NCBI RefSeq assembly: GCF_010672525.1
Contig: NZ_JAAHGH010000002.1
Span: forward strand, 266,583-330,582
Origin: Okeania sp. SIO2B3
Lineage (GTDB): Bacteria; Cyanobacteriota; Cyanobacteriia; Cyanobacteriales; Microcoleaceae
DNA: 64,000 bases
Direction: 5' to 3'
The first letter of the stretch is position 1; every line of letters starts with the position of its first letter. The position numbers and the translations under genes were made by a program. Of the stretch, positions 1,820 through 45,364 are shown in pieces. The notes under the pieces are model-generated. The model did not search any database. It had not been told where the DNA came from and saw only the letters and a program-made list of their open reading frames with translations.

Positions 1820-1884
1820 TTTTACCTCATGTCTTCAGATCAAATCATGAAATAACGCTTGACAAATTCGCCAATTTTATTATT

Positions 1885-2263: not shown

Positions 2264-2415
2264 TATTTGGGTGGATTACTGGGGAAGAGTGAAAGAAAAA
2301 ACATATCTCCTTTTTGTTAAAAATTCTAATTTAGCACTCCTTAACAAGTTTTATCTATATGTTACCTTCCTCGTAACCTTGCCTTAGCTGAGAGAGTTGA
2401 TAATAATTCTGCTAA

Positions 2416-3496: not shown

Positions 3497-3601
3497 ACTT
3501 GTTTTATTACTATTTGAAAATTACATTAAACTTCTATCCTCACTAACTCCTGAAAGTCAGAATTTAATTTCTGACTTGGTGACTTGGTGACTTGGTGAAT
3601 A

Positions 3602-3797
3602 ATACCAATTTGATAAATGTTTGTTACAAATGGTAGAAGTAATAAAGAAGGAATAAAGAAGAAGGAAGAGGGGAAAAATATTTAAAAAAAGGGAAAAAAC
3701 GATAGATATAAATATCTAAAATGAACTAGGGCAGCTATTTTTAAGCATATCCGATCAAACTCTACCCTTTTGTAGCATTCTTTTTTCAAAGTGGTAT
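3602..3797 (+). repeat. Family E element (terminal inverted repeats)
   Basis: The left end is ATACCAATTTGATAAATGTT and the right end is TTCTTTTTTCAAAGTGGTAT. Related elements are at 13102-13348, 28384-28611 and 28613-28808. The interior is purine-rich filler plus a segment (TAGATATAAATATCTAAAAT onward) shared in inverse orientation with 28613-28808. It separates the frameshifted gene from the tandem array. Confidence 0.6.
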
Positions 3798-4410
3798 AAA
3801 TTATATTAATTGCCAGAAAATATGTTTTTCCTGTGGAAATAAATTTTCAAAATTCATCCCTTATGCTTGTCTTATTAGTATTTGAAATTTATATTAAACT
3901 TCTATCTTAACTAACCCCTGAAAGTAAGAATTTAATTTCTGACTTATGAATAAATTATATTAATTGCCAGAAAATATGTTTTTCCTGTGAAAATAAATTC
4001 TCAAAATTCATCCCTTATGCTTGTCTTATTAGTATTTGAAATTTATATTAAACTTCTATCCTAACTAACCCCTGAAAGCAAGAATTTAATTTATGACTTG
4101 GTGAGTAAATTGTATTAATTGCCAGAAAATATGGTTTTCCTGTGGAAATACATTCTCAAAATTCATCCCTCATGGTTGTCTTATTAGTATTTGAAATTTA
4201 CATTAAACTTCTATCCTAACTACTGAAAGTAAGAATTTAATTTCTGAGTTGGTGAATAAATTGTATTAATTGCCATAAAATATGGTTTTCCTGTGGAAAT
4301 ACATTATCAAAATTCATCATTGTTTTATTACTATTTGAAAATTACATTAAAGTTCTATCCTAACTAACCTCTGAAAGTAAGAATTTAATTTCTGACTTCT
4401 GACTTCTAAC
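3796..4410 (-). repeat. Tandem array (four ~152 bp units) copied from the 5' end of the neighbouring gene
   Basis: Units begin near 3799, 3951, 4106 and 4256. Each carries TTAATTGCCAGAAAATATG, then TTTTCCTGTGGAAAT, then AATTCATCCCT, then a stretch ending in AAGAATTTAATTTCTGACTT. The same order occurs once at about 3433-3590, where it encodes the first ~20 codons and upstream leader of the gene starting at 3496. The units are diverged and no start codon is kept in a long frame, so they are promoter-plus-start duplicates and not genes. Confidence 0.75.
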
Positions 4411-4435
4411 TTCTAACTTCCAACTTCTAACTTCG

Positions 4436-6724
4436 TTACTCCCCTACAACTTTTTTCATATAATTCCCCCATAACTGAGCCGCTTGTCCGCTAGTACTAT
4501 AAGTAGGAGAATTATCATCATTTCCTAACCAAATACCTGTCACCATACTCTTGTTAGGAATATAACCAACAAACCATAAATCTACTCCTCTATTAGTCGT
4601 ACCCGTTTTACCTGCTTCATCCAACCCTAAAGAAGCTCCACGACCAGTACCATATTGCACTACTCCTTGGAGCATTTGAGTCATGGTATCTGCTATTTGT
4701 GGTTTTAATATCTGGCGGTTAGCTTGAATATCCCCTTGAGGGTTTTCACAGCTTGGATCTGAATTATAGGAATAAATACAACGACAAGTGTAGATATTAT
4801 CGCGATCGCTACAGTCGCTACTATCAATAATCTTTCTAATAGTATGAGGGCGGTTTCCTACTCCACGGTTAGCGATCGCTCCATAAGCGCCAGTTATTTC
4901 TAAGACGTTAACTTCATTTTGACCCAATATTAATCCTGGTACAGCATCTAACTTAGATTTAACCCCTAAACGCTTTGCCATCCTGACAACATTACCTAAA
5001 CCTACTTGTTGAGCAACTCGCAAAGCTACCACATTTTCAGAAAGTGCTATTCCAGTGTACATATTTGTATTGCCACCACTGCGTTGACAACCTCCGTAAG
5101 TTTGACCCATCCATCTCATGGAACTACAAGAATATATTTTTGTTGGTGGTATCCCTCTTTCCAGAGCAGCAGCATAGGCAAATACTTTGAAGGTAGAACC
5201 TGGTTGACGTTGTGCTTGAGTTGCCCGGTTAAACTGACTCTGTTGATAATCTGCACCTCCAGTCAAGGCAATGACTTCTCCATTTTTAGAGTCTATTGTG
5301 ACTATAGCGCCTTGAGAAAAATTAGCATAAGATCCAGCATTGTTAATTGCATCTTTTAAACTTGTTTCTGCTTTAGTTTGAATTTCAGGATTTAAAGCTG
5401 TTTGAACAACAAAATTTCCCTCTCTAGCTAAATCTTCTCCTAATAATTCTTCCAGTTCACTAAATACATAACTATAATAATAAGGTGCTATTGTACTTTG
5501 GAGAATTTCTATAGCTTTAGGATTAATTTCTACCCGCGATCGCCTCGCTCTATCCGCTTCTTGTTGGTCGATCATGCCCAAAGTGAGCATTCGATAAATT
5601 ACTCCATCTCTTTTTTCTATAGCTATTTGATAATTTTCTACAGGATTAAAAGTATTAGGTGCTGGTAAAATTCCTACTAATGTTGCTGCTTCTGATAAAG
5701 TTAAATCTTGAGCGCTTTTACCAAAATAAAATCTAGAGGCATCTTCAAATCCATATAAATCTAACCCCAAATAAACCTTATTCAGATAATTTAATAATAC
5801 ATCGTTTTTACTATAAAAAGCCTCTATTTTGAAAGATACTATTGCCTCTCGTATTTTCCTACCCAAAGAATCTTCTGTACCTACATAGTCACGAAAGACA
5901 CTTCTTGCTAATTGTTGAGTTACTGTACTTCCTCCTTGGCTTATACCATCTGCCCTCAAATTTGTCAATACTGCTCTAGTAATTCCGATGGGGTCTACGC
6001 CGAAATGCCAATAAAAGCGACTATCCTCAGAAGCAATAACCGCATCAGGTAAATATTTAGAGAATTTAGATATGCGCCCTAATTCATAATGAGCATTTCT
6101 GTAGGTGGGACGTAGAGGAGTTTGCCCATCACGAGCATAGACAACTACTGGGCCAGTAATTGGATTGGGTAAAGGGTCTACCTGAAATTTTGTCCATTCA
6201 AGTAGAATCATTAAACTGATTAGAGCGGTTAATCCAGAAAGACCAAAGACAGTATAACGAAATGCTTGAAAATACCAGGCAGGAGGGTCTACATAACGAA
6301 TTTTAACAGTATCAGCTAATACTGGTGGTCCTAAAGTTAGAACATCGCCATGACGTAGAGACATACGAGAAACTTGTTTTTTCCCATTGTAGATACCATT
6401 AGCAGAATTCTCGTCTTTAACTACATAAGAAGCTTTAGATTTATTAGTATTTTTCGAGACAGACAGATGAATTTTACTAATCAGGGGATTACGAATGACA
6501 ATATCACAAGCTTGGGAAGAGCGGCCTAGTAAATAGCGATCGCCTAAAAGAGGATATTTTTTAGCTGGAGTATTCTCTGTTTCCTGTATCCAGAGTTCGG
6601 GTAATTTAGCATTAGGTCTCAGTGCTAGTCGGGAAAAGTTAACATTGGCATGAATAGTTTGAACCATCTGGGTAATATTGCCCAAGAGAGTTTGAGAGTT
6701 ACGAGGAGGTCGTGGATAATTCAT
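4436..6724 (-). CDS. FHA-domain bifunctional penicillin-binding protein 1 (glycosyltransferase/transpeptidase)
   Basis: This is a 762-residue class A PBP that polymerises and cross-links peptidoglycan at the outer face of the inner membrane. Order: an FHA domain at about 57-145 (GRSS, then NGIYNGKK), which binds phosphothreonine peptides; one membrane helix at about 157-176; a GT51 domain with EDSRFYWHFGVDP (E233 the probable catalytic acid) and QGGSTVTQQLAR; and a transpeptidase with SxxK at 510-513 (PGSTFK), SEN at 562-564 and KTG at 705-707. All three transpeptidase motifs are intact. A cytoplasmic FHA front end is a known cyanobacterial arrangement that suggests control by Ser/Thr kinases (inference). 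The gene stands alone. Its last 35 codons also occur as a stray copy at 2155-2263. Confidence 0.95.
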   Translation of the reverse strand: MNYPRPPRNSQTLLGNITQMVQTIHANVNFSRLALRPNAKLPELWIQETENTPAKKYPLLGDRYLLGRSSQACDIVIRNPLISKIHLSVSKNTNKSKASYVVKDENSANGIYNGKKQVSRMSLRHGDVLTLGPPVLADTVKIRYVDPPAWYFQAFRYTVFGLSGLTALISLMILLEWTKFQVDPLPNPITGPVVVYARDGQTPLRPTYRNAHYELGRISKFSKYLPDAVIASEDSRFYWHFGVDPIGITRAVLTNLRADGISQGGSTVTQQLARSVFRDYVGTEDSLGRKIREAIVSFKIEAFYSKNDVLLNYLNKVYLGLDLYGFEDASRFYFGKSAQDLTLSEAATLVGILPAPNTFNPVENYQIAIEKRDGVIYRMLTLGMIDQQEADRARRSRVEINPKAIEILQSTIAPYYYSYVFSELEELLGEDLAREGNFVVQTALNPEIQTKAETSLKDAINNAGSYANFSQGAIVTIDSKNGEVIALTGGADYQQSQFNRATQAQRQPGSTFKVFAYAAALERGIPPTKIYSCSSMRWMGQTYGGCQRSGGNTNMYTGIALSENVVALRVAQQVGLGNVVRMAKRLGVKSKLDAVPGLILGQNEVNVLEITGAYGAIANRGVGNRPHTIRKIIDSSDCSDRDNIYTCRCIYSYNSDPSCENPQGDIQANRQILKPQIADTMTQMLQGVVQYGTGRGASLGLDEAGKTGTTNRGVDLWFVGYIPNKSMVTGIWLGNDDNSPTYSTSGQAAQLWGNYMKKVVGE

Positions 6725-34587: not shown

Positions 34588-34687
34588 GCTATAACTTAGT
34601 TGGTCAGAGGACTACCTTTACTGGTAGGGATTACAGAATATGGACGTAACAGGACTCGAACCTGTGACCCCTACCATGTCAAGGTAG
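34588..34687 (-). other. Left attachment site (att) with 3' part of tRNA-Val
   Basis: Same 100 bases as 44758-44857 except at 34594 and 34639. The half 34641-34687 duplicates the tRNA-Val 3' part; the other half (TTAGTTGGTCAGAGGACTAC onward) resembles the 5' part of a valine tRNA on the plus strand. Just inside lie TGTACCAATACTGTACCAAA direct repeats (34758-34777), possible integrase arm sites. 34688-35014 is otherwise empty. Confidence 0.8.
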
Positions 34688-35014
34688 ACAGTCTGTAATC
34701 TTGTATCCCCTGCCTATCAAGAGCTTACTGAGGGTTAAACAGCCCTTCTCTAGTTCCATGTACCAATACTGTACCAAATAGCGCTAAATCAAGGAATTTT
34801 TATTACTATTTTTTTCAAATAATGGCCATCGATTTGCTACTTGTAAAGTGGCCAAATTTCAGTAAACAGGTAATGCGAAAAGTAATGATTTATTGAAGGC
34901 CAAAAAAAACGCATCATCATGGCCAATAGAGACCAGGCAATATTTCTTTAAGGTTTAAGGGCATTTCAGCCTGTATATAAGTATTTTTTGCAAATATTTG
35001 TTATACAAGAAAAA

Positions 35015-35224
35015 TTACGCCCCTCCTTGACTGGCTAAGGCTTTCGATATTTCCAGTTTGTCCCTTAAAGGGGTCTGGCTCTCCACACTTTTTACCCACT
35101 CCGTGACGAGCATATTAATTACTTCAGACTGGTTGGCTCCATATAGCGAGGAGTAGTATTTCAACTTTTCTTTAAGCTCAGGTTCTGTATAGACTTTAAA
35201 GAAAGGTTTCCTTTGTTTTGTCAT
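35015..35224 (-). CDS. Small ribbon-helix-helix-like protein
   Basis: 69 residues. FFKVYTEPELKEKLKYYSSL then YGANQSEVINMLVTEWVKS has the strand-helix-helix pattern of CopG/Arc-type DNA-binding proteins, where the strand (KPFFKVYT) reads DNA as a dimer. It lies 30 bases downstream of the replication gene on the same strand and is probably co-transcribed, so a copy-control or partition role is plausible. A good AGGA (AATGATGATGGAGGAAAAC-like leader on the coding strand) precedes ATG 35224. Confidence 0.6.
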   Translation of the reverse strand: MTKQRKPFFKVYTEPELKEKLKYYSSLYGANQSEVINMLVTEWVKSVESQTPLRDKLEISKALASQGGA

Positions 35225-35254
35225 TGTTTTCCTCCAAATGATGATGATTTTGAC

Positions 35255-38200
35255 TTACTGAACTTGCCAGATTACAGGGTAGCTTTCCCCTATCTTCCTT
35301 CTAATCAATTTAATTTCATTCGTACAAAAAGTTACTATCTTCCCAGGTAAATTAGCTTTAATAACGTCTCCTACTATCTCCAAGAACTGACAATATATCC
35401 TGCCGTCTTTTAGGTCTATGTAATCCCATAGTTTAAACTCAGGCAATGGATTTTCTGGCTCTTCTATATCCCTGGTAAATTTACTATACTTACTGTTTAA
35501 GACCAAGGTAGGAGGTTTAATCTTGTGTTTACCACTGCTGAGTTTGGTAGGTTCAAATTTCTCTTCATCAGACGATAAAGCTTCATTTTTCTCACCGAAA
35601 TAATCTGAATTGTACTTACCGATAAGTTTATCCCGCCTAGTATCTAGACACCGCTCTAACAGAGGCCCCATCATTATAGTCCTAGAGACACCCCCTTTCT
35701 CATCCTTTTCGTGATAACAAAGCACGTCCTCTAGTCTGTACTCTCGCTTCCTGTCATTGCCTCTTGATTGCCCAATGCTGCTAGCCTTCAATCCTACCAA
35801 GTCGAGTATATTGTTGAGATATCTGATATTACTGAGCTTTTTCTGCTTGGGCAACAGCTTGCTTTCATTAGCAATAGCAATGAACTCCATGACGGTTGGA
35901 GATTCGCCCGTGAAACTAGGGTTCTCTAATAAGTGGAAAGGAAGTTTAGACAATTCATCAACTTCAGAGTGCAGAATATCGATATCAGGCAAAAAGCAGC
36001 CATAAATAGCCCTGTTGACAGTTTTGCTGTCTCTGATAGCATCATTCAGCTCCTTGTTTTTCAATAGATAACGTCTCCACAGTTTCGTCTTTGCATCTGG
36101 GTTGTTAAATAGCACCTCTGCTATCAAATCAATTCCCCACTCGTTAGTTCCATCTATGCCTGGGAAAAACTGTTTCAGCCTGTACCTCTCTATCTCTCCT
36201 GACTGTTGTTCATTCTTAGCTTCAACTTTGTCTACTAACTCATATTCTGCTTCTGTTAAGTCTTTAGCGTCAAAAATAGATAACGAACGGTTATAGATGA
36301 CTGAGGCCGACTCTTCATAAGTACTAATAGTCTCGTCGTCTATTTCAACATTCTTAGGAGTAAAAACCTTGTACCCTCTACTCTTCAAGTCGTGTACTAT
36401 CAGTTCTCTAAAATTATGCTGCTCAAGCAATCTAATTTCATCAAGTTGATCTAGATACTGTGAATAAGGTGAGCTTGTGTCGTAATCCAAGACCTCACAG
36501 CAGCTATCAAACAGCGCCTTCCTAACATCCCAGTCTTTGCTCCTAGCCTTGTATTTAGTCTTGTCTTCCATTAGAGAATACATCCGTCCTAATTTGACAA
36601 GCTTCAAGTCATCAATATATTTACCCTGGTTCTTAGCTTTGTAAGTAAACAGGTGCACAGGACAATTCGTGTCTCGAAGTCTGTGCATCATCTGTACGCA
36701 GGCATCCAATCCTAAGTGAGTCCACCTGACAAATATGTGGTCGAAATAATCTCTGGTGTCAATGCTTAATCCTGATTCGGCGGTAGGACTCACTAAGACG
36801 TAATCATACAGATTGAGACAGTCGTCTGGTGATTTCAGAAACTCTCCAACTTCTTTCTGATACAGAGTCCTGGAATTTATCACTAACGTCTTGCTGTCGC
36901 TTCGTAAGCTTACTGTTTTTAAATTCCAAGACTCTGTAAACAATTGAGAGTCAGTACATATCAATGCTCTTCCGTTGCTCTCAATGTAATTAACCAGCAT
37001 CTGCCGAAATAGACTTTCGTCGTCATAAACAGATATTTTCCTTTCTGGCATCTGGTGAGTATTCTTTACCTTTATCTGTTTGTCAAACCCCGTGAGGGAC
37101 TCTATTAGAGTAACCTCTCTGTCAGTAAGCTGGTCTGACATGATAATCACTCCAGCACAACTTTGGAGTAACTCAGTCAATCTCTTCGTTAACTGCATCC
37201 TTTTACCTTTACAAGTACTTGAAGTTAGCAAATGCTCTATCACTAAAGGGCATTCATCAAAAACGAGTATCTTATCTCTAACAGCCTCTGGGTCTATCTT
37301 CCAAATACTATCGATACATAAAGAGATAGACTCACCTTGTGCTGCTATCTGAAGACGACTAGCAGTTTCTGTTATGTGATACAGGGACGGTATCCTTTTT
37401 CCTGTTTGTTTCAATAAGCTGTTTCTGTACCCAATGAGAATGATGCCAAGTTCATTTACTATCTTTTTCAGGGCTTCGGTCTTGCCAGTCCCCATAGGAG
37501 ACTTTAGTGCCAACAGCGTTTTAATACTTTTTTTGACATCGCTAATAAATTCGTCTAAAGGGTTTTTGTTGTCACCCCAGAAATAGTCCTTTACAGGCAG
37601 ATACCTAGATTCAAATCTATAATGTGGAGTGAATACCTTGCTGTCTACTATCTCTTTGAACTCTCTGTTTTTCTTCTCAAAACTGTTAAATGATATCAAC
37701 TTAAAATCTCTATTCCCTGTTGCTAACTTATCATCAAAATCGCTGTGTATCTTAGTGAATTGACCGTACCAGATGATATGCACTTCCTTGTCATATTCTT
37801 TCTTTATGTAATCAACTAATTCTCTATATTTCTGAATAACCAAATCATTTTCTCCACTGCCAGCGTCAGCAGCTATAGCAAAAGTAAATCTCCCAGGATT
37901 GCCGTTAGTTACCTTAGAGATGAACTCATCTACGTCATCCCAGTTCCCTTTGAAATTACCACTAATAGCACCTATGGTCGGGTATCCAGACAGTTTATTT
38001 ATAACCTGTGCTTTCAAGCAGCCTTCAGAAAAAATGATGACGTTTTTTCTACCCTTATCCCCTTTGCCTTTATTGATTGTAAACCTCACTCGCTTACTCA
38101 TGTTTTGCTGACATAAAGTGTGCGGAGTCTTCTGGTTTATGTGGTGATTAATTCCACCTTTGCTCCCACCAGATAACCAGATATACTTACCATCCTTGAT

Positions 38201-38806
38201 TTTTAATTGCCCTCCAATAACATATCCATCTTCATTGAGAACAGGACAGAAGTAAGCATTTTTAGGTACATTAAATCTAGGTTTGCCCATTCCATCCCAG
38301 TAAATACCAGGTAGCTGTTGAAATTCACTGCTCACTATGCCTTTTGGGAACGATTTACCAAGTAAACCTGTAGATTCAATACCACGTCTTTTAAGGTCAG
38401 CTAGCGCCCAGTCCTCTACTGGTTCGTTCTCTAGTAGCTTGTAAAATTCATCGTTTAACTCTTTAGGTGCTAGCGTAGTGCTTTTTGCTTGCGGTGCTGG
38501 CTTAGGTTGTGGTAACTTCCTGTATTCTGATAGCTGATTCCTGTCGGGAGCGTAGAGATAGCCTATGCCTGCTTTGTCTTGCCCCTTATTCTCCCATCCC
38601 GGCACTTGCCAGTCTTCACCACAAATAACTAATTGGCCATTCGTCTTGCATCTTTTGTGAAGACCTCCACAGATGGGACAGTTTTCACCTAGCTTATTGA
38701 ATCTAACCCAACCTGCATGAGTTGACGTTTCTGTACTAGATAGATTATTATGATGAACATCACTATGATTGTTTTTATCTATTATCATTTTCTTCGCGGT
38801 TGTCAA
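35255..38806 (-). CDS. CyRepA1-like plasmid replication protein (Toprim/DUF3854 plus helicase)
   Basis: 1183 residues. The N-terminal zinc-finger-like region (CPICGGLHKRCKTNGQLVIC, 39-58) resembles primase zinc ribbons. A Toprim-like DUF3854 domain follows at about 255-340 (VIIFSEGCLKA, then FTFAIAADAGSGEND). The helicase has Walker A SPMGTGKTEA near 432, Walker B ILVFDECPLV near 515, LVSPTAESGLSI and QMMHRLRD (~710). The C-terminus is unassigned. This layout matches the cyanobacterial CyRepA1 replication proteins, which initiate plasmid replication. The first codon could be TTG 38806 or ATG 38788; neither has a strong ribosome site, and a CGGTTGTCAACCG inverted repeat overlaps the TTG. Strand and position suggest it is the element's replicase. 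Confidence 0.85.
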   Translation of the reverse strand: MTTAKKMIIDKNNHSDVHHNNLSSTETSTHAGWVRFNKLGENCPICGGLHKRCKTNGQLVICGEDWQVPGWENKGQDKAGIGYLYAPDRNQLSEYRKLPQPKPAPQAKSTTLAPKELNDEFYKLLENEPVEDWALADLKRRGIESTGLLGKSFPKGIVSSEFQQLPGIYWDGMGKPRFNVPKNAYFCPVLNEDGYVIGGQLKIKDGKYIWLSGGSKGGINHHINQKTPHTLCQQNMSKRVRFTINKGKGDKGRKNVIIFSEGCLKAQVINKLSGYPTIGAISGNFKGNWDDVDEFISKVTNGNPGRFTFAIAADAGSGENDLVIQKYRELVDYIKKEYDKEVHIIWYGQFTKIHSDFDDKLATGNRDFKLISFNSFEKKNREFKEIVDSKVFTPHYRFESRYLPVKDYFWGDNKNPLDEFISDVKKSIKTLLALKSPMGTGKTEALKKIVNELGIILIGYRNSLLKQTGKRIPSLYHITETASRLQIAAQGESISLCIDSIWKIDPEAVRDKILVFDECPLVIEHLLTSSTCKGKRMQLTKRLTELLQSCAGVIIMSDQLTDREVTLIESLTGFDKQIKVKNTHQMPERKISVYDDESLFRQMLVNYIESNGRALICTDSQLFTESWNLKTVSLRSDSKTLVINSRTLYQKEVGEFLKSPDDCLNLYDYVLVSPTAESGLSIDTRDYFDHIFVRWTHLGLDACVQMMHRLRDTNCPVHLFTYKAKNQGKYIDDLKLVKLGRMYSLMEDKTKYKARSKDWDVRKALFDSCCEVLDYDTSSPYSQYLDQLDEIRLLEQHNFRELIVHDLKSRGYKVFTPKNVEIDDETISTYEESASVIYNRSLSIFDAKDLTEAEYELVDKVEAKNEQQSGEIERYRLKQFFPGIDGTNEWGIDLIAEVLFNNPDAKTKLWRRYLLKNKELNDAIRDSKTVNRAIYGCFLPDIDILHSEVDELSKLPFHLLENPSFTGESPTVMEFIAIANESKLLPKQKKLSNIRYLNNILDLVGLKASSIGQSRGNDRKREYRLEDVLCYHEKDEKGGVSRTIMMGPLLERCLDTRRDKLIGKYNSDYFGEKNEALSSDEEKFEPTKLSSGKHKIKPPTLVLNSKYSKFTRDIEEPENPLPEFKLWDYIDLKDGRIYCQFLEIVGDVIKANLPGKIVTFCTNEIKLIRRKIGESYPVIWQVQ

Positions 38807-39007
38807 CCGTGTTTTTTTTTGCGCAATGAAAAGTTTTCAAAAACTTATTGCATTATTTTAAAAACTTTGAATATGATCTCATTCTAACGACCAATTTTGA
38901 AAATGGTTATGTGGCGAGTAAAAAAAAATAAATGCTCTAATATTAGAGCAGGACTTTTATCAGAACGGATGAGAGAGGTTGTTGCAATATTGCAACAACC
39001 TCTCTTT
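38797..39007. promoter_or_regulatory. Palindrome-rich region upstream of the replication gene (possible origin/operators)
   Basis: Three perfect inverted repeats lie within 210 bases: CGGTTGTCAACCG (38797-38809), TGCTCTAATATTAGAGCA (38933-38950) and a 34 bp palindrome with arms AGAGAGGTTGTTGCAAT/ATTGCAACAACCTCTCT (38972-39005). The interval is AT-rich with AAAACTTT-type repeats. Candidates are replication origin, autoregulatory operators, or a terminator between the small-gene cassette and rep. Placement upstream of a Rep gene supports origin function but does not prove it. Confidence 0.45.
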
Positions 39008-39081
39008 GACTTTTAAGTTCATTTGACTAGCGATTAACAACAATCACTATGTGGCCACTTTAGTTGACTATTTCAATCGAA

Positions 39082-39648
39082 TCACACATCACTATCTTTA
39101 AAGTCCTCTTGCAATTGAGTTACTAAGGCTTTAATCTCAGCGAGTTTAGTTTTGCCCTCTTGATATTTTCTTCCTTTGCATCGCAACACATTTTCGATAA
39201 TAAAAGTATCGGACTTACCTTCACTTACTAACCTAGCGACTTCCGTGATTAAGCTAGTTGGAAATTGTTCGTTAGTGGTAGTGGAAGTGTTATCTGGAAG
39301 TTGCTCCGGATAAATATCAATCGGCTCATCTGTAACTGGCAATTCAGGAATGCCCTGCTTTTGCTCATAGATGTAGGTAGCTATAGTATGAGTAAAAGTC
39401 TCATCATCAGCTTTCCTAAGTATGGTGAAAATAGGTGAGTACCTATTAATAGCTAGGGATAGTCCAATGGTAGATAAGCCAGACAGTAAGCTACCTGAGT
39501 AGAGTAGTGACTTAATAGCGGTATCGGATGACGCTGTAGGTGCTACAAAGAGGATAAGGGATGAGAAGGTGGCGACACTTGCTGCGGAGATTAATAAAGT
39601 TTTGAATGACTTCAACATTTCCAGTAGGAGAGATGGTCTTAGATCCAT
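39082..39648 (-). CDS. Element-encoded membrane protein with long soluble tail, unknown
   Basis: 188 residues from ATG 39648, chosen because GGAGG lies 9 bases upstream and the frame overlaps the previous gene's stop by about 10 bases (translational coupling). A longer frame opens at 39693 but has no ribosome site. Two membrane helices (LLISAASVATFSSLILFV and SLLYSGSLLSGLSTIGLSLA) precede a Pro/Thr-rich linker. The helical tail (SLITEVARLVSEGKSDTFII, VLRCKGRKYQEGKTKLAEIK) looks like a DNA- or protein-binding module seen on cyanobacterial plasmid proteins; function not known to me. Confidence 0.6.
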   Translation of the reverse strand: MDLRPSLLLEMLKSFKTLLISAASVATFSSLILFVAPTASSDTAIKSLLYSGSLLSGLSTIGLSLAINRYSPIFTILRKADDETFTHTIATYIYEQKQGIPELPVTDEPIDIYPEQLPDNTSTTTNEQFPTSLITEVARLVSEGKSDTFIIENVLRCKGRKYQEGKTKLAEIKALVTQLQEDFKDSDV

Positions 39649-39872
39649 ATTAGGGAACCTCCGAGTAAACATATAGCGATAACTATCGACCATATTCTCA
39701 GCTCAGGCTCTAACCATAAAAAAGCCAAGACGGCGATCGCGAATCCTGATAGCAAGATAGCTGGCAAACGCAGAGTGGGTGAATGTTTCATAGTGAGGTT
39801 AAGCAGAGATGATACGCTTAAACCTGACAGTAAACACCCCCATAAGAAGTAAAATTGTGATAAGCTATTCAT
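39639..39872 (-). CDS. Small integral membrane protein, unknown
   Basis: 77 residues, almost entirely three membrane helices (FYFLWGCLLSGLSVSSLL, LPAILLSGFAIAVLAFLWL, WSIVIAICLLGGSLIWI). Its stop overlaps the start of the next gene, so the two are translated together and likely act as a membrane pair. No homologue recognised. Confidence 0.6.
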   Translation of the reverse strand: MNSLSQFYFLWGCLLSGLSVSSLLNLTMKHSPTLRLPAILLSGFAIAVLAFLWLEPELRIWSIVIAICLLGGSLIWI

Positions 39873-39990
39873 AATTATTTGAGTGTTACTCCGGCTAAAC
39901 CTTTAATGTAATTCGTAGGCTCGTCAGAAGGAAGTAACCTTGAGAGCAGTTATCATTTTTATATAAGCAGGTATATAAGTAAGTTATTAT

Positions 39991-40012
39991 ATAAAATTGA
40001 GAACGCTCTCAA
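39991..40012 (-). terminator. Probable rho-independent terminator after the 171-codon gene
   Basis: On the minus strand TTGAGA-GCGT-TCTCAA is followed by TTTTAT. It lies directly downstream of the stop at 40026. The stem is short (6 bp), so moderate confidence. Confidence 0.5.
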
Positions 40013-40025
40013 TGTTAGGTCAAAA

Positions 40026-40526
40026 CTACTGTTTCAAGTTATTTGCTATTCGCTCAATTTGCTGCTGTGCTGAGTTTTCCGCTCTCTGTAATCCAGTATT
40101 GATACCAGCGTAGCCCGGCCTTAATGAATGCAGAGTACGTCCAACGCCAGCGAGCTGACGAGTTTGTTTCAGTCCTTCTCTAGCATTGCTCTTGGCGTAC
40201 CGTGAGTGATAACTAACTACCTTAGTATCGTACTTGTCAATACGTTGTAGCTCCTGATATCCTACCCTTGATGCTTTCTTAGCTTCCGCCAGTTGTTTTC
40301 TGTGAGCTGTTAAAGCCTTGGCCTCAGCCGGAGTCATATAACGAGCTGAGGGTACAACTGGTACTGACTGGATGCCTTGCCAGTCGGGAGTATTATCGGG
40401 TGAGAACCTACTCATTACGCCACCGGAGATTATGTCATCTTTATTGATAGCGTGACTGCCAGAGCCTAAAGTTTTACTCGATGTTTTCTTGCTATCATTT
40501 CCGAAATACTGCTTTAGTAGTCCCAT
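40026..40526 (-). CDS. Element-encoded basic helical protein, unknown
   Basis: About 166 residues from ATG 40526 (MGLLKQYFGNDSKKTSSKTL), selected over an upstream GTG because AAGGA sits 7 bases before it. The protein is Lys/Arg/Gln-rich and helical (YMTPAEAKALTAHRKQLAEA, ENSAQQQIERIANNLKQ), without membrane segments or known motifs. It could be a structural or nucleic-acid-binding protein. It is one of the small cassette genes of the integrated element. Confidence 0.55.
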   Translation of the reverse strand: MGLLKQYFGNDSKKTSSKTLGSGSHAINKDDIISGGVMSRFSPDNTPDWQGIQSVPVVPSARYMTPAEAKALTAHRKQLAEAKKASRVGYQELQRIDKYDTKVVSYHSRYAKSNAREGLKQTRQLAGVGRTLHSLRPGYAGINTGLQRAENSAQQQIERIANNLKQ

Positions 40527-40615
40527 CGTTAATTCCTTCACTAAATGTACTTACTGATATCAAAGGGAAAGATATCAATAAAATTGCTAATGTAAACCCT
40601 GCTAAGAAGTGAGGG

Positions 40616-40843
40616 TTAATGAGTGTCGTTTGTTTTGTTCGCTTTGATTTTTTCATAGCCTAAGCCGATTTCTACTGATATCGATGAACAGTGTTGACTA
40701 CCATCAAGAGGCAGTGGTACTGACATCGTATGAATGTAACCATCTACAGTCAAATTCAAGAGGACAGCGGAGTACAGTTTGTCATCATCCAAAGGGGCGA
40801 GATAGCTGATGCTATCGACAAGTTCGTTTTTCATCAGGAGCAT
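40616..40843 (-). CDS. Small element-encoded protein, unknown
   Basis: 75 residues (MLLMKNELVDSISYLAPLDD), predicted strand-rich middle (YSAVLLNLTVDGYIHTMSVP). No family recognised. The start could be ATG 40843 or ATG 40834. The upstream gene stop at 40859 lies 15 bases before it, so it belongs to the same leftward operon. Confidence 0.5.
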   Translation of the reverse strand: MLLMKNELVDSISYLAPLDDDKLYSAVLLNLTVDGYIHTMSVPLPLDGSQHCSSISVEIGLGYEKIKANKTNDTH

Positions 40844-40858
40844 CTTCTTTTTGTGTTA

Positions 40859-41146
40859 TCAGCCTATGTGGGGAGTACCGGGGAGAGCAGAGAAAAACAT
40901 AGATTCGTCTAAATCTAATGATTCCAACTGCTCATCTTTCTCTCTGAAGATTTTCTCTTGGATAATCATCCGAGCCTCTTCTTTGTAATCGGTGAGATAC
41001 TTCTTGTAAGCTTGTCCCCACTCAATGGCATCTTTTCTTGCCTGGATGCGAGCGTCATCAGTATTGTCTGACTGGATAGACTGCCTAACAGACTGTTGTT
41101 GCCTCGCATTCAATTGTTGTATAATCGCTCCGTTGTTCGTTGTCAT
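40859..41146 (-). CDS. Small element-encoded helical protein, unknown
   Basis: 95 residues from ATG 41146 (MTTNNGAIIQQLNARQQQSV), which has GGAGG 4-5 bases upstream; the longer frame from 41164 lacks this. It is helical and charged (ARKDAIEWGQAYKKYLTDYK, EARMIIQEKIFREKDEQLES). It overlaps the upstream gene by ~60 bases in another frame, a compact layout typical of phages and plasmids. Confidence 0.55.
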   Translation of the reverse strand: MTTNNGAIIQQLNARQQQSVRQSIQSDNTDDARIQARKDAIEWGQAYKKYLTDYKEEARMIIQEKIFREKDEQLESLDLDESMFFSALPGTPHIG

Positions 41147-41462
41147 TATCCTCCAGTAAATCAATAATAGTGTTCAAGTGATACACGGCTTGAGCGCGCC
41201 CTCTAGAAGTCGCTAGGGAGCGGTAAGCTATCATAGCTTCACAACTTTTCCGGTCATAGCCCTTGTCATACTTAAAGTGGGTGAAACCTTTGATATTACA
41301 CTGAGAGAGCAATTCTACATCTCTAGTAAACTGAGAACTAGATATTTTTAGTCCTGTACGGTTTAGAGCTTCTAAGAGTTGACTTCTAGTGAAAAAGTCT
41401 TTATCGCCCAACGCGATAAAAATACTGGCTCTGATTTTCTCGATCGTCTTTTCGTTGAACAT
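41085..41462 (-). CDS. Small winged-helix-like protein, first gene of the element cassette
   Basis: 125 residues. IRASIFIALGDKDFFTRSQL then LEALNRTGLKISSSQFTRDV looks like a winged-helix or helix-turn-helix N-terminus, followed by a basic patch (HFKYDKGYDRKSCEAMIAYR). AAGGAG lies immediately before the ATG with almost no spacing, which is odd; no better start is in frame. It is the promoter-proximal leftward gene opposite the plus-strand RHH gene, so a regulator is likely. Confidence 0.5.
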   Translation of the reverse strand: MFNEKTIEKIRASIFIALGDKDFFTRSQLLEALNRTGLKISSSQFTRDVELLSQCNIKGFTHFKYDKGYDRKSCEAMIAYRSLATSRGRAQAVYHLNTIIDLLEDNDNEQRSDYTTIECEATTVC

Positions 41463-41745
41463 CTCCTTTTAGGTAAAGGTTACTACTTACTAATAGCCTC
41501 ATTAAGTAACTGTTCGCTATGGGGGATGGTCATTGGTAAAGAACCTGTTTGATATACCAGGGTCAATACTCGTAACGTCCACCGAAAAGGGAGCAGCAAC
41601 TAGACAAAGCTGCTAGTAATGGGATATGGTGTATATGTCAATGAGATATGGGCTATGGAAACTACCCCGTGATTCTAGGGACGACACCCTTCTATCCAGT
41701 CGGTGTTTCCTATTTGCTCATGTTTGTATTTTATTCAATATCCCT
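41463..41745. promoter_or_regulatory. Divergent control region of the element
   Basis: Between the leftward cassette and the rightward RHH gene. It contains GATATGG-type repeats (TGGGATATGGTGTATATG, ATGAGATATGGGCTATGG near 41619-41656) and a CAGCAACTAGACAAAGCTGC hairpin (41594-41613). I see no clear leftward promoter by eye. Confidence 0.4.
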
Positions 41746-41774
41746 TTGAGATGTCAAGGGAATAACAGTATAAA
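41741..41774 (+). promoter_or_regulatory. Sigma70-type promoter with overlapping operator-like inverted repeat
   Basis: TTGAGA (41746-41751), 17-base spacer, TATAAA (41769-41774), placing the start about 30 bases before GTG 41804. TCCCTTTGAGATGTCAAGGGA (41741-41761, written here as arms TCCCTTTGA and TCAAGGGA) is an inverted repeat across the -35 box, the expected position of an RHH repressor operator. Confidence 0.6.
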
Positions 41775-41803
41775 TATTGGTTATATCGAAGGAGTTGGAA
41801 AAA

Positions 41804-42091
41804 GTGCCTGAGAGAAAAGCTCTGTCTGTAGCAGTCCCTGACGACTTGATGGAAGTAGTAAGAATGTTGTCAGAACATTCCGGAAAAAGTATGTCGTCAT
41901 CTCTGATATATATAGCTGAAAGAGGCGCTCCCATTATCATTGATGAGCTAAACAAATTTGAAATATATAAGGAAGCTGTAGCTAAAAGGAAGGCCAAAGA
42001 AAGTAGCGATTCTATAAAAACAAACGAAGTTGAGAATGACGGTAAACAAAAAGTAAAGGAGAAAAGTGGTGATTCTAAAAGTAAAAATTAG
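41804..42091 (+). CDS. Ribbon-helix-helix (CopG-like) regulator
   Basis: 95 residues from GTG 41804, chosen because AAGGAG lies 9 bases upstream. The strand ALSVAVPDD, then helices LMEVVRMLSEHSGKSMSSSL and IYIAERGAPIIIDELNKF, match the RHH fold; the Lys/Glu/Ser-rich tail is disordered. As a dimer it probably binds the inverted repeat over its own promoter and controls the divergent small-gene cassette. It is the only strongly supported rightward protein gene of the element. Confidence 0.65.
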   Translation: MPERKALSVAVPDDLMEVVRMLSEHSGKSMSSSLIYIAERGAPIIIDELNKFEIYKEAVAKRKAKESSDSIKTNEVENDGKQKVKEKSGDSKSKN

Positions 42092-42114
42092 CATCACCAC
42101 GAACTAACTGCTTC

Positions 42115-42149
42115 AAGCATGGCCTGAAAGAATAGTCATGCTTTTTTTA
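42115..42149 (+). terminator. Rho-independent terminator of the RHH gene
   Basis: AAGCATG and CATGCTT form a stem around a 15-base loop and are followed by TTTTTT, just after the stop at 42091. Confidence 0.75.
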
Positions 42150-42168
42150 TACTTTTACTTCTGGTAAA

Positions 42169-42984
42169 TTATTCAACAGGGAATTGTTGACTTAACTCCT
42201 GGACAGTTTGTTGAATCAAACTCAGTTTATCATCTATGGAAGCTAAAACTTCCTTGGGGTCAATGTCAGTAGAATCTTTTTTGACGTACTGCACCGCCTC
42301 TTTCACCCAATTACGAATACCCATAGGAGCAAATGCCCTGTAGGTATTCTTCGCTCTTTCGTGGACATCATCGAAAGCATAGTATTCAATGATTTTGGTT
42401 ATGACAGAATCAGATAACTTTTCTCGACCGTCCACCCAATTAGTTATAAGGGTCTTTGTACTTCTTGGTATGGAATTCCAGACTACTTGTCCGATTTTAG
42501 ATTCCGACGTAATTACAGCCTCCTTGATTGCTCGCTCCCTAACGCCAGTCAACTTTGTTACCGCCTTTATACTGAGATAACCGATACCCCTATCTTCATT
42601 GAAAACAATCTCCTTTTGAATTGCTAACGCATAAATTAATACCCGTGAATCAATACTTTCAGCTTCAGCAACTTCTTTGACTTCAGGTAAAATTTCCTTC
42701 AATATCCAACATTTAAACTCTCTTTCTCCTACGGAGTCCAACATTAAGTCATATAGTCCAAACTCAGAAGTGATAGTAACCTCTTGCTCATCTGATATCT
42801 TGTAGGTAGTTTTTTCTTCTTCGTTTAGTCTTTCAATAGGTGTTTTCAAGATTTCACAGATATCCTCTACGAAAAAGTAGGGCTTATCATCGTTAAGGAT
42901 GACGACACGAACTTTATTCGAGTTAAAATTGTAGGTAAGCATAATGTCCTGATGGTTAGTTTCAACTGCTAACCATTTTTTCAT
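42169..42984 (-). CDS. BRO-N domain protein
   Basis: 271 residues. The N-terminal ~100 match the BRO-N DNA-binding domain of phages and mobile elements: VRVVILNDDKPYFFVEDICE, ILKTP, then SEFGLYDLMLDSVGEREFKC and WILKEILPEV. The C-terminal part (YLSIKAVTKLTGVRERAIKE, YAFDDVHERAKNTYRAFAPM) is unassigned and differs from the common ANT and KilA-C partners. ATG 42984 is preceded by AGAGGAC at good spacing. BRO proteins often act as antirepressors or regulators in temperate phages; on this element it may control the lysogenic-like state. Confidence 0.8.
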   Translation of the reverse strand: MKKWLAVETNHQDIMLTYNFNSNKVRVVILNDDKPYFFVEDICEILKTPIERLNEEEKTTYKISDEQEVTITSEFGLYDLMLDSVGEREFKCWILKEILPEVKEVAEAESIDSRVLIYALAIQKEIVFNEDRGIGYLSIKAVTKLTGVRERAIKEAVITSESKIGQVVWNSIPRSTKTLITNWVDGREKLSDSVITKIIEYYAFDDVHERAKNTYRAFAPMGIRNWVKEAVQYVKKDSTDIDPKEVLASIDDKLSLIQQTVQELSQQFPVE

Positions 42985-43052
42985 ATGTAAGTCCTCTTGT
43001 CTTGCGACAAGTAAAGGAGAGGATTGCTTATTCTAAAAGTAAAAAATAAGTG

Positions 43053-43081
43053 TTGACAAATCAAATTTGAATGTGTATATT
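43053..43081 (+). promoter_or_regulatory. Near-consensus sigma70 promoter
   Basis: TTGACA (43053-43058), exactly 17 bases, TATATT (43076-43081). It faces right in a gap without a conventional rightward gene and points into the hairpin-terminator unit. Confidence 0.7.
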
Positions 43082-43087
43082 AACAAT

Positions 43088-43258
43088 GTGACTTAATTTA
43101 AAGCCATTTAAAATTGATATCACCACAGACGAGCATATATTTTATCTTATTATATAAATTATACAAGTAATTTATATAAGTACTGAAAATATGCTCTAGC
43201 AACATAAAATAGTAATTAATGGACATTAAACCACCGTAAATTGACGCGGTGGTTTTCT
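43088..43258 (+). ncRNA. Candidate small structured RNA of the integrated element
   Basis: Starts about 7 bases after the promoter and ends at a rho-independent terminator: AACCACCG, loop, CGGTGGTT, TTCT (43229-43256). Between them is a long hairpin (43131-43196): outer arms GAGCATAT-A-TTTT/AAAATATGCTC, and an inner perfect 12 bp stem TTATATAAATTA/TAATTTATATAA with loop TACAAG. No open frame of note lies inside. Size ~170 bases. It could be a copy-control or antisense RNA, a regulator of integrase or BRO, or an RNA component of an unknown system. The evidence is sequence signals only. Confidence 0.55.
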
Positions 43259-43283
43259 GATACTAACAAGAATAAAAGGGGCA

Positions 43284-43400
43284 TTGACGGAGGAAATTAG
43301 GATACTACAGGAGCAGATGAAAACACTAGAAGAATTAGAAAAATCAAAGTTAGAATCAGTTCCGGAGGAAAAACAGAGCGGTAAGCAAAGAACAAAATAA
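43284..43400 (+). CDS. Possible 38-residue coiled-coil peptide
   Basis: The frame from TTG 43284 reads LTEEIRILQEQMKTLEELEK then SKLESVPEEKQSGKQRTK and stop: leucine at heptad spacing, then a basic tail. AGGGG precedes at short spacing. It lies just after the candidate RNA terminator. Could be a fragment or chance frame; the composition looks coding. Confidence 0.3.
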   Translation: MTEEIRILQEQMKTLEELEKSKLESVPEEKQSGKQRTK

Positions 43401-43486
43401 CCTTGCTAACAAGAAGTATAAAAACACCTAGCGAACGAAAAATGAAGATATCATCTCGCAATCAACGCCTGGAATAACCATTTGTC

Positions 43487-43543
43487 GTGTCACAGATACA
43501 TAAGGGGGGAGTTAATATATCCCCCTAAGTTGATGTGTGACAC
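43487..43543. terminator. Long inverted repeat between the small-RNA locus and the integrase end
   Basis: Outer arms GTGTCACA/TGTGTGACAC and inner arms GGGGGA/TCCCCC make a strong cruciform-capable stem. It sits 20 bases past the integrase stop on the minus strand, so a terminator or an excision-related site are both possible. Confidence 0.45.
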
Positions 43544-43561
43544 CCAGAAGGTGGTTTAATC

Positions 43562-44698
43562 TTAAATTTCAGGAATCACGACATTATCATTCGCTCCCCA
43601 GTAGTGATTTAATATCATCTTCTCACTCGTTCCAGCGAGTTTAGCTACTGTGGCTAAATCTAAGTCTTTTTTTAACATCAGAGTTATCCAACTGTTCCTC
43701 AATGAATATGGGGGCAGTTTTTTTGATATCAAGCCTTCCTTGTATAGTGCCGATATCACTCTCTTGAATGCTCGCTGAGAAAAATTGTGGTGGTTCAAGT
43801 AACTTCCACTAGGAGAGGGGAAGATTAGTTTCGTTCTACCCCCACGGCTTCCTTCAATAATGTTTTTCAATTGGTCATTTACAGGAATTGCTCTTTCTCT
43901 ACCTGTTTTTGTCGATAGCTTTAAATGCCCATGCGTATAAGCTTTTCGGATATTAATCACTCTAGATTCCAAGTCAACGTCATCCCAGGTTAAGGCGATC
44001 GCTTCTTCTGGCCTGCATCCTGTTAAGCTTAAGAAGGCTGTATAGGGGTAATAGAAAGAATGTCTCCCTTTCTTGTCCGAATATTTATCATACCTGAAAG
44101 CTTCTAGTATCTGGTTGATTTCACTCTCATTCCACACCTCTTTGCATCGGCTCTTTTTGACGTAGTCTTTCTTTGGTTTATCAAACCTAATCAAACGGAT
44201 ATCGCTCCCCTCTAGGCTTGCATTAATATCAGTTTGAATCATTCTCAAGCTTTCTCCAGAGTACATTTCTTTAGCGACTTCTATAAACCTTTCGTGGGTT
44301 CCGTTTTTACCTATTTTGCCAAAAACCCTGTTAACCATCCTCCAGGATGTCGCCTGCCTAGAATTGCTTACGCGATCGCAATTCTTTTTTTTATAATCCT
44401 CCCAGTAGTCCCATAGTGTAATTCTTTTTTCTACTGGGACATACCCTGGTCTATACTTAGCCAGTTTTGGGTCATAGGCATCTGGAAATCCCATCTTATA
44501 TTTAGCCATGTCCGAATCTATCTGCTTGGCCACAAGCTCTGCTTTCTTGAGACTGTCCTCTGTGCTTACGGGACAAACAGATATGGCCTTGCGTTTACCT
44601 GTGGGGTCAGTGAATCTAAGTCTATATGACCCACCGTGTATTTCTATATTTACCTTGCCAATTTTTGCCTTGATTTTGTTTGTCTTTTGACGTACCAT
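43562..44698 (-). CDS. Tyrosine recombinase (integrase) of the tRNA-Val element
   Basis: 378 residues. Arm-binding AP2-like N-terminus (NIEIHGGSYRLRFTDPTGKR, 18-37), core-binding helices (~95-180), catalytic domain (~187-378). R229 (LTGCRPEEA) and K264 (TKTGRERAIP) are in place. Box II reads PYSLRNSW with R334, where Tyr and Asn take the usual first and second histidine positions; LAGTSEK replaces LGH. The nucleophile is Y366 (NHYWG). Enough is kept for activity, and tyrosine or asparagine at these spots occur in some integrases. It starts 60 bases from the right att copy and should catalyse integration at tRNA-Val. No excisionase is recognised. Confidence 0.92.
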   Translation of the reverse strand: MVRQKTNKIKAKIGKVNIEIHGGSYRLRFTDPTGKRKAISVCPVSTEDSLKKAELVAKQIDSDMAKYKMGFPDAYDPKLAKYRPGYVPVEKRITLWDYWEDYKKKNCDRVSNSRQATSWRMVNRVFGKIGKNGTHERFIEVAKEMYSGESLRMIQTDINASLEGSDIRLIRFDKPKKDYVKKSRCKEVWNESEINQILEAFRYDKYSDKKGRHSFYYPYTAFLSLTGCRPEEAIALTWDDVDLESRVINIRKAYTHGHLKLSTKTGRERAIPVNDQLKNIIEGSRGGRTKLIFPSPSGSYLNHHNFSQRAFKRVISALYKEGLISKKLPPYSLRNSWITLMLKKDLDLATVAKLAGTSEKMILNHYWGANDNVVIPEI

Positions 44699-44757
44699 TC
44701 TAGTACCACTTTATTGATTGAAAATGGCGCTAGAGAAGGACGTTATAGCTCAGTCGA

Positions 44758-44857
44758 GCTATAGCTTAGTTGGTCAGAGGACTACCTTTACTGGTAGGGA
44801 TTACAGAAGATGGACGTAACAGGACTCGAACCTGTGACCCCTACCATGTCAAGGTAG
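44758..44857 (-). other. Right attachment site (att) overlapping tRNA-Val
   Basis: 100 bp direct repeat partner of 34588-34687. Bases 44811-44857 are the 3' part of tRNA-Val up to the end of its anticodon stem; bases 44758-44810 are a plus-strand tRNA-Val-like 5' part (AGCTTAGTTGGTCAGAGGAC, anticodon-loop-like TTTACTG). Two anticodon-arm sequences therefore face each other in the core. Confidence 0.8.
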
Positions 44858-44884
44858 TGCTCTAACCAACTGAGCTATACGTCC
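44811..44884 (-). tRNA. tRNA-Val (GAC)
   Basis: The reverse strand reads GGACGTATAGCTCAGTTGGT at the 5' end, anticodon arm CTACC-TTGACAT-GGTAG with anticodon GAC, T arm ACAGGTTCGAGTCCTGT and acceptor TACGTCC-A. 74 bases, complete cloverleaf. It is the integration target; its 3' part is supplied by the element. Confidence 0.94.
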
Positions 44885-45364
44885 AAACTGGGTTTTACTA
44901 TACCCATAATTCAAGTATACCAATTCGAGACCAAAAGTCTAAATTTTATGAGTAGCGTATAAATAATACCTATATTTTTACTGAAAAATACATAGGAATA
45001 TCTTATGACTATACATTTTCTTCTAGCAGGGGGAATCTGTAAGTCTGTGCTTACGTCCACTTTTTTCGTTATACGTTATACTACCTTTGTCTAAAATATC
45101 AATTTTTTTTGAAATATACAGATACAAAAAATATGAACAAAACTGTAAAAATACTGCTGAGAGATTTCAAGAAGCAAGATAATTATCATTGGAGTGGCAG
45201 TAATGCTTAGTGTCTGTGGCATCAGCAGTCTACCCTATTACTAAAAAACTTGCCAAACAATTCAATGCCAACGATCAGCTAGATATCGCAGTCAATGCAA
45301 TTTTATTCAACCTGAATATGTACAAAGTTCTCACGAAACGAACAGAATATTAATTAAAAAAATT
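44885..45364. other. Intergenic upstream of the arsenic operon
   Basis: No secure gene. A rightward frame at about 45210-45353 reads [20 protein letters not shown] then [16 protein letters not shown] and stop, possibly a gene remnant; I do not recognise it. No ArsR gene or clear operator is seen. Confidence 0.4.

What the first reader, a model, noticed from the sequence alone, without database searches (positions are those of the whole stretch)
43053..43258. Orphan promoter, long hairpin and terminator: a candidate small RNA gene
TTGACA-N17-TATATT is followed at the right distance by a 66-base hairpin with a perfect 12 bp inner stem and an outer 11 bp arm, then a G/C stem with a T-rich tail. 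No protein frame fits inside. It lies between integrase and BRO-N in the element. It could be a copy-number RNA, an antisense regulator, or the RNA part of an unknown RNA-protein system.
Basis: partly seen in the sequence, partly recalled or inferred. Interest (0 to 1): 0.75.

Follow-up and report, generated by a model that had tools for sequence, protein, structure and literature searches.

The report
Small RNA gene in mobile element
A short stretch of DNA in a mobile element of a filamentous cyanobacterium looks like a real gene for a small RNA, because its start signal, folded shape and stop signal are kept in a second cyanobacterium although the DNA just after it is not; what the RNA does is still unknown.

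Summary
In detail: at 43053-43257 there is TTGACA-N17-TATATT, a 66-nt hairpin (43131-43196) and a terminator-like stem, with no sense-strand frame of 20 aa or more. The unit has one homologue, on a Hydrocoleum sp. CS-953 contig (73-74% identity, ending within 4 bases of the terminator tail). Fourfold-degenerate codon positions of shared genes are 40% identical and the DNA downstream 45%, so the unit is under selection. Promoter hexamers (12 of 12), outer stem and terminator arms are kept; all 4 consensus pairs that vary are compensated; the inner hairpin is 58% identical but folds as a long stem in both. The host element (34588-44857, at tRNA-Val) carries an integrase and a CyRepA1-family replication gene. 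In Hydrocoleum the unit starts 4 bases after a putative ribbon-helix-helix gene (RHH1); in the window a BRO-N gene separates them, yet the unit is intact. Best reading: an independent small RNA gene that arose behind RHH1 and probably regulates the element's replication or maintenance. Transcription and target are unproven; the base-pairing search was unconvincing. No Rfam family matches. New member of a known kind.

The parts
43053..43081 (+). promoter: TTGACA-N17-TATATT
   Evidence: both hexamers identical (12 of 12 bases) in Hydrocoleum L007, spacer 12 of 17
43088..43130 (+). 5' part of the predicted RNA (start at 43088 assumed from the -10 box), with a small 4-bp stem and conserved GCCA loop at 43099-43110
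   Evidence: 28 of 44 aligned positions identical for 43088-43131; 2 of the 4 stem pairs changed on both sides and still pair; start site not measured
43131..43196 (+). 66-nt two-part hairpin: conserved outer stem, variable inner stem (43150-43179)
   Evidence: 5' arm 10 of 13, 3' arm 13 of 14, inner part 25 of 43 identical in L007; the L007 hairpin has z -4.0
43197..43227 (+). conserved linker ending AATGGACATT
   Evidence: 22 of 29 identical over 43198-43226
43228..43257 (+). terminator-like stem AAACCACCG/CGGTGGTTT with tail TTTTC
   Evidence: eight pairs unchanged in L007, the two innermost changed on both sides and still paired
43009..43048 (+). second copy of the 3' tail of the RHH1 gene, just upstream of the promoter
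   Evidence: 34 of 40 identical to 42051-42090
41804..42091 (+). RHH1: 95-aa putative ribbon-helix-helix protein; its homologue directly precedes the unit in Hydrocoleum
   Evidence: 75-76% identical to L007:6411-6704; Pfam RHH_5 E 0.0072, 16.5 bits, below the cut-off of 26
42169..42984 (-). BRO-N protein with BstA-like second half, lying between RHH1 and the unit
   Evidence: Pfam Bro-N E 2.9e-9; BstA matches at 131-242 (PHROGs) and 133-238 (PADLOC); no match in L007
43562..44698 (-). tyrosine integrase
   Evidence: Pfam Phage_integrase E 4.2e-19
35255..38806 (-). CyRepA1-family plasmid replication protein
   Evidence: NCBIfam NF042913 272 bits, cut-off 200; 25% identity to the pSYSA CyRepA1 protein, E 2e-27
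41088..41462 (-). p125, first gene of the presumed leftward rep operon
   Evidence: 77% identical in L007; operon inferred from gene order
34588..34687 (.). left att repeat
   Evidence: 98% identical over 100 bp to 44758-44857
44758..44857 (.). right att repeat, overlapping the tRNA-Val gene (44809-44885)

Best explanation
An independent gene for a small RNA of about 170 nt, carried by a roughly 10-kb tRNA-integrated CyRepA1-type element. Shown: promoter hexamers, hairpin shape and terminator are kept between two cyanobacterial elements while neutral sites are scrambled. Also shown: in one element the gene begins 4 bases after the stop of the putative regulator gene RHH1, and in the window it is intact although a BRO-N gene separates the two. 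Inferred: it is transcribed rightward from its own promoter and ends at the GC stem, and it descends from a 3'-end small RNA gene of RHH1. Inferred and weaker (about 0.35): RNA and RHH1 act on the same targets, most likely the divergent rep operon or its leader, to limit the element's replication or excision, the RNA by base-pairing through its conserved unpaired segments.
For: One homologous block, 43030-43261 against L007:6685-6920, 74%, E 5.6e-32. Unit 150 of 205 identical, against 82 of 183 in the next 200 bp, a shuffled mean of 49% (maximum 64%, 100 shuffles) and 135 of 341 fourfold sites in 7 shared genes, p171 and integrase in part. Promoter hexamers 12 of 12. In a 21-pair consensus (small 5' stem, outer stem, terminator) both sequences form all pairs; 17 pairs never vary and all 4 that vary changed on both sides. 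Inner hairpin 25 of 43 identical, yet both hairpins fold well (z -6.2 and -4.0). No sense-strand frame of 20 aa or more in the transcribed part of either. CyRepA1-family rep gene and att repeats define the element; the Hydrocoleum element has its own 55-bp identical repeats at a tRNA-Ala. Precedents: pSYSA asRNA1 on a CyRepA1 plasmid (PMC9978351, abstract and passages); the argR gene is immediately followed by the sRNA gene argX (PMC6586332, title and start of abstract in the listing).
Against: Only two sequences, so covariation is thin: 34 of 500 shuffles reach the same score, and the structure was derived from these same sequences. The window's inner stem is not the same pairs as Hydrocoleum's (6 of 10 form on the same columns). 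No transcript data. Fold scores do not favour one strand consistently. Duplex energies with element sequence are at the edge of shuffled RNA (window: equal to the best of 10 shuffles; Hydrocoleum: 0.4 kcal/mol beyond the best of 10, at a terminator with the same arms), and among the 22 best complementary runs listed per element none recurs at the same place. The terminator's T tract is short. More distant elements with p125 or RHH relatives lack the unit, so it is not essential to this kind of element.
Confidence: 0.62

Rival explanations
1. It is only the 3' untranslated region and transcription terminator of RHH1, stranded when BRO-N arrived, with no job of its own.
For: In Hydrocoleum it directly follows RHH1 and, by inspection, carries the first terminator-like stem behind it.
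Against: A bare 3' UTR needs no -35 and -10 at 17-nt spacing, yet both hexamers are unchanged. In the window RHH1 has a stem with a T tract of its own (42115-42143, fold z only -1.2), but the detached unit kept its parts.
Confidence: 0.15
2. It acts as DNA, for example as an origin, partition or recombination site with a hairpin.
For: Hairpins fold well on both strands (z -6.2 and -3.7 in the window, -4.0 and -3.6 in Hydrocoleum); the element presumably replicates and recombines.
Against: Conservation follows a promoter and a terminator as well as the hairpin; the inner hairpin sequence is not kept.
Confidence: 0.1
3. A copy-number antisense RNA of the pSYSA asRNA1 or pMV158 RNAII kind, pairing with the rep leader or a small gene beside rep.
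For: CyRepA1-family rep, a putative RHH protein beside a divergent rep operon, and a conserved leader 41597-41740 (117 of 144 identical).
Against: The unit is not opposite to rep or to a conserved frame and lies over 4 kb from rep. RNA model R1 found nothing in the pSYSA region. No convincing complementarity.
Confidence: 0.2
4. RNA or DNA partner of BRO-N, such as an anti-BstA (aba) immunity element or another RNA-protein system.
For: BRO-N is next door and has a BstA-like region.
Against: The Hydrocoleum element has the unit without a BRO-N match. The aba element overlaps the start of bstA and needs terminal CCCGCC repeats (PMC8585504 passages); CCCGCC does not occur on the + strand of 43030-43261.
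Confidence: 0.04
5. A type I toxin-antitoxin pair: the RNA silences a 42-aa frame on the opposite strand (43098-43226).
For: The frame exists and is rich in hydrophobic residues; the homologue has a 24-aa TTG frame there whose residues from YML on resemble its end.
Against: The first half of the frame is not kept; the changes compared are not mainly synonymous (by inspection); the nearest minus-strand promoter-like sites upstream end at 43514, about 290 bases away.
Confidence: 0.02

Closest known systems
pSYSA asRNA1/ssr7036 control of the CyRepA1 plasmid (Synechocystis 6803, PMC9978351)
   Same: similar-sized noncoding RNA (asRNA1 is 153 nt) on a replicon with a CyRepA1-family replication gene
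   Different: asRNA1 is antisense to the coding sequence of ssr7036, beside cyRepA1; this unit is antisense to no conserved gene and lies over 4 kb from rep
3'-end small RNAs behind a regulator gene (e.g. ArgX behind argR, PMC6586332; review PMC9438474; both seen in a listing only)
   Same: small RNA gene immediately behind a (putative) regulator gene
   Different: here on a mobile element; transcription and target not shown; detached from the regulator gene in the window
pMV158 CopG plus antisense RNAII (PMC4485353, start of abstract in a listing)
   Same: a small regulator protein and an RNA beside a replication gene; that CopG is an RHH protein is recalled
   Different: RNAII inhibits repB translation as an antisense RNA; no such complementarity was found here
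BstA/aba (PMC8585504, passages)
   Same: a BstA-like protein lies beside the unit in the window
   Different: aba appears DNA-based and overlaps bstA; the unit also occurs without any BRO-N match

Membership tests
3'-end sRNA with own promoter | lies at the 3' end of a protein gene | tested here: met
   4 bases after the RHH1 stop in L007; detached in the window
3'-end sRNA with own promoter | own promoter at sequence level | tested here: met
   11 of 12 consensus, hexamers conserved
3'-end sRNA with own promoter | detected transcript | not testable with these tools
   no RNA data at hand
3'-end sRNA with own promoter | pairs with a target mRNA | tested here: inconclusive
   nothing convincing within the element; host genome not searched
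pSYSA asRNA1-type copy control RNA | replicon encodes CyRepA1 | tested here: met
   272 bits, cut-off 200
pSYSA asRNA1-type copy control RNA | RNA locus beside cyRepA1, upstream of it | tested here: not met
   rep starts at 38806, unit at 43053
pSYSA asRNA1-type copy control RNA | complementary to a small coding gene on the other strand | tested here: not met
   only a 42-aa frame whose first half is not kept
pSYSA asRNA1-type copy control RNA | sequence or structure similarity | tested here: not met
   model R1, from 2 sequences: no hit up to E 5 in L058, the pSYSA region
CopG/RNAII-type control | small RHH repressor | tested here: inconclusive
   RHH_5 16.5 bits against a cut-off of 26; no PDB sequence relative up to E 1
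CopG/RNAII-type control | RNA antisense to rep mRNA | tested here: not met
   not opposite to rep; no convincing complementarity
aba-type anti-BstA element | linked to a BstA gene, with terminal CCCGCC repeats | tested here: not met
   no BRO-N match in L007; CCCGCC absent from the + strand of the unit
any Rfam 15 family | reaches the gathering score | tested here: not met
   window: only 2 tRNAs; permissive searches of 41450-43600 and L007:6100-7000: 4 sub-threshold hits each

The most novel reading that the evidence does not exclude
A previously undescribed RNA family in which the outer stem and terminator are fixed and the inner stem keeps its shape but swaps its sequence, serving as the specificity (incompatibility or superinfection) determinant of a CyRepA1 integrative element, read by RHH1 or Rep in a protein-RNA control circuit that is not simple antisense.
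Probability: 0.12. Interest if true: 0.7.

Novelty: new member of a known kind. Interest (0 to 1): 0.45.

Why it matters
If transcribed, it would be a small RNA gene outside Rfam 15, carried by an integrated relative of the CyRepA1 plasmids, a replicon family whose RNA-linked example, pSYSA, was reported in 2023 (PMC9978351) and is of interest for cyanobacterial vectors. The detached copy in the window and the attached copy in Hydrocoleum form a natural experiment suggesting that the RNA is a gene in its own right.

Tried and rejected
Homologues: no DNA match in plasmids or phages. Of 59 genomes searched with 42985-43561, own included, 3 matched: own, Hydrocoleum, and G058 with 28- and 34-base pieces outside the unit. 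Of 388 genomes of the order, own included, 12 matched at E 0.001 or better, but only own and Hydrocoleum over the whole unit; the other 10 matched 26-67 bases (at most 2 candidates scored per genome). Family: 2 of 61 by blastn and 2 of 61 with RNA model R1 under stricter filters, own included in both. The RHH1 profile in genome contigs gave 1 locus, the same Hydrocoleum contig. Viral contigs: no relative with the RHH1, rep or p125 profiles; two patterns hit 2 and 1 contigs, judged chance because no element protein matched there. L002 (90% over 39 bases in the own genome) covers part of the inner palindrome only and looks like chance.

Distant elements: RHH1 relatives in 7 of 388 genomes and p125 relatives in 9 of 388, both counts including own and Hydrocoleum. 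Model R1 over 20 sources gave the two known copies; of the 6 other hits the best (E 0.2) is the Hydrocoleum hairpin read on its other strand. The stems behind the RHH gene of L051 did not match the model.

Targets: long duplexes gave -56.1 kcal/mol in the window against -49.3 to -56.1 for 10 shuffled RNAs, and -63.3 against -54.1 to -62.9 in Hydrocoleum (the shuffles used coarser steps; the Hydrocoleum best hit is a terminator with the same arms). The best window seed, 11 nt in RHH2, is not in the Hydrocoleum list. Also rejected: MITE (one full copy in the own genome); leader of a 38-aa frame, 43284-43400 (the DNA behind the terminator does not align with Hydrocoleum); retron-like and ToxIN-like readings (no reverse transcriptase among the 10 proteins scanned; no repeat array seen), the knowledge of those systems being recalled.

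Full report
1. What is there. The promoter hexamers lie at 43053-43058 and 43076-43081 with a 17-nt spacer. The 66-nt hairpin is 43131-43196, with a perfect 12-bp inner stem at 43150-43179 and an outer stem of 8 plus 5 pairs. The terminator-like stem is AAACCACCG (43228-43236) with CGGTGGTTT (43247-43255) around a 10-nt loop. The fold of 43088-43260 has z -5.4, with 0 of 200 shuffles as stable. Perfect hairpins of 12 bp or more occur at 5 distinct places in the window against a mean of 0.1 in 40 shuffles. One of 4 strong promoters is followed by one; in 60 shuffles none was. Two stricter terminator scans did not list the stem because of its loop; it appears with a loop limit of 12, a change made after seeing the miss.

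2. Conservation. A search of 59 genomes (own included) gave one long match besides the window itself, G034:C351, the same contig as Hydrocoleum sp. CS-953 NZ_LGSU01001313.1 (same length and match position). The aligned block is window 43030-43261, 74%. Within it the hexamers are identical (12 of 12), the spacer 12 of 17, the hairpin's outer arms 10 of 13 and 13 of 14, the inner hairpin 25 of 43, the linker 22 of 29, the terminator 5' arm 9 of 10. In a 21-pair consensus made of a small 5' stem with GCCA loop (43099-43110), the 7-pair outer stem and a 10-pair terminator, both sequences form every pair; 17 pairs never vary and all 4 that vary changed on both sides (2 in the 5' stem, 2 in the terminator). 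With two sequences this is weak: 34 of 500 shuffles do as well, and the structure was taken from these sequences. A fifth doubly changed pair involves the promoter spacer and is not counted. The Hydrocoleum hairpin alone has z -4.0, the longer RNA z -3.6 with 1 of 200 shuffles as stable. The inner stem thus keeps its foldedness while its sequence drifts, but the pairs are not the same ones: on the columns of the Hydrocoleum inner stem the window forms 6 of 10 pairs.

3. Is the similarity selected? In seven shared genes (p171 and integrase in part) fourfold-degenerate positions are identical at 135 of 341 sites (40%). The unit is identical at 150 of 205 positions (73%), the DNA behind it at 82 of 183 (45%), and shuffled copies of the Hydrocoleum unit align at 49% on average, 64% at most (100 shuffles). 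The unit is therefore conserved well beyond neutral DNA.

4. The element. A 100-bp direct repeat, 98% identical, bounds 34588-44857, the right copy overlapping tRNA-Val. Inside are a tyrosine integrase, a CyRepA1-family replication gene (272 bits, cut-off 200; 25% identity to pSYSA CyRepA1), RHH1, BRO-N and small genes. The Hydrocoleum element is bounded by 55-bp identical repeats at a tRNA-Ala. It shares p171, p101, p125, RHH1, RHH2, rep and, more weakly, the integrase, but shows no BRO-N match.

5. Position and history. In Hydrocoleum four bases separate the RHH1 stop codon from the -35 hexamer. In the window the last 40 bases of RHH1 occur twice, at 42051-42090 and 43009-43048 (34 of 40), with BRO-N between. 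The simplest reading is that BRO-N came in at the RHH1-unit junction; the reverse order of events cannot be excluded. On this reading the unit belongs historically with RHH1, not with BRO-N. That promoter, outer stem and terminator are intact in the detached copy argues for a function independent of RHH1 mRNA; how long ago the two were separated is not known.

6. What it probably does. Inference: a regulatory RNA of the element. CyRepA1 plasmid pSYSA is reported to be controlled with the antisense asRNA1 (PMC9978351, abstract and passages), and the sRNA gene argX follows its regulator gene argR (PMC6586332, listing only). By analogy RHH1 and the RNA may both act on the divergent rep operon, whose leader (41597-41740) is a second conserved noncoding stretch (117 of 144 identical) that folds on both strands (no shuffle control). 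Against this, base pairing within the element was not convincing: the window's best duplex equals the best of 10 shuffles, Hydrocoleum's exceeds the best of 10 by 0.4 kcal/mol at a terminator with the same arms, and none of the 22 listed complementary runs per element recurs at the same place. The host genome was not searched for targets.

7. Known families. No Rfam family reaches its threshold (permissive searches). It is not a pSYSA-type asRNA (wrong place, no conserved gene opposite) and not an aba element. It works most like a 3'-end small RNA with its own promoter, but transcription, which defines that class, is untested.

8. Limits. Two sequences only; no expression data; searches cover the held collections and score few candidates per genome. 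Confidence that this is a transcribed, selected RNA gene is about 0.8; that it controls replication or maintenance of the element about 0.35; the combined statement is given as 0.62.

Noticed in passing
window 41597-41740: Noncoding stretch between RHH1 and the rep operon, 117 of 144 identical in Hydrocoleum, with a nearly invariant core (GATTCTAGGGACGAC...TTTGCTCATG); it folds on both strands (no shuffle control); a possible leader RNA or origin.
   Followed up: partly
window 38972-39005: Perfect 15-bp hairpin upstream of the rep gene, between it and p203 (z -6.4).
   Followed up: no
window 42169-42984: BRO-N protein whose second half matches BstA, an abortive-infection protein family, with a copy of the RHH1 tail on either side.
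   Followed up: partly
window 44760-44788 and 44851-44879: Inverted tRNA-Val-like fragment beside the intact tRNA-Val (90% over 29 bp).
   Followed up: no
L007:411-642: At the left end of the Hydrocoleum element a TTGACA-N17-TAATGT site (411) is followed by a terminator-like stem (593-620) with the same AAACCACC/GGTGGTTT arms as the unit's; L007:500-642 does not fold unusually (z -0.5).
   Followed up: partly
L007:858-1176 and 1064-4981: The Hydrocoleum rep frame is fused to the p171-like gene, and a 114-bp stretch is repeated at its end.
   Followed up: no
L050:5768-7750 and L053:8656-10677: A second copy of the p125-p101-p171-p203 gene block in the window's own genome (L050) and one in a relative (L053), with no RHH1 match at E 0.001.
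   Followed up: partly
window 43284-43400: 38-aa TTG-started frame directly behind the terminator; the DNA there does not align with Hydrocoleum.
   Followed up: no
L051:4529-4566: Strong hairpin with TGTCTAGT/ACTAGACA arms behind an RHH gene; ACTAGACA also lies in the conserved leader of the window element.
   Followed up: no
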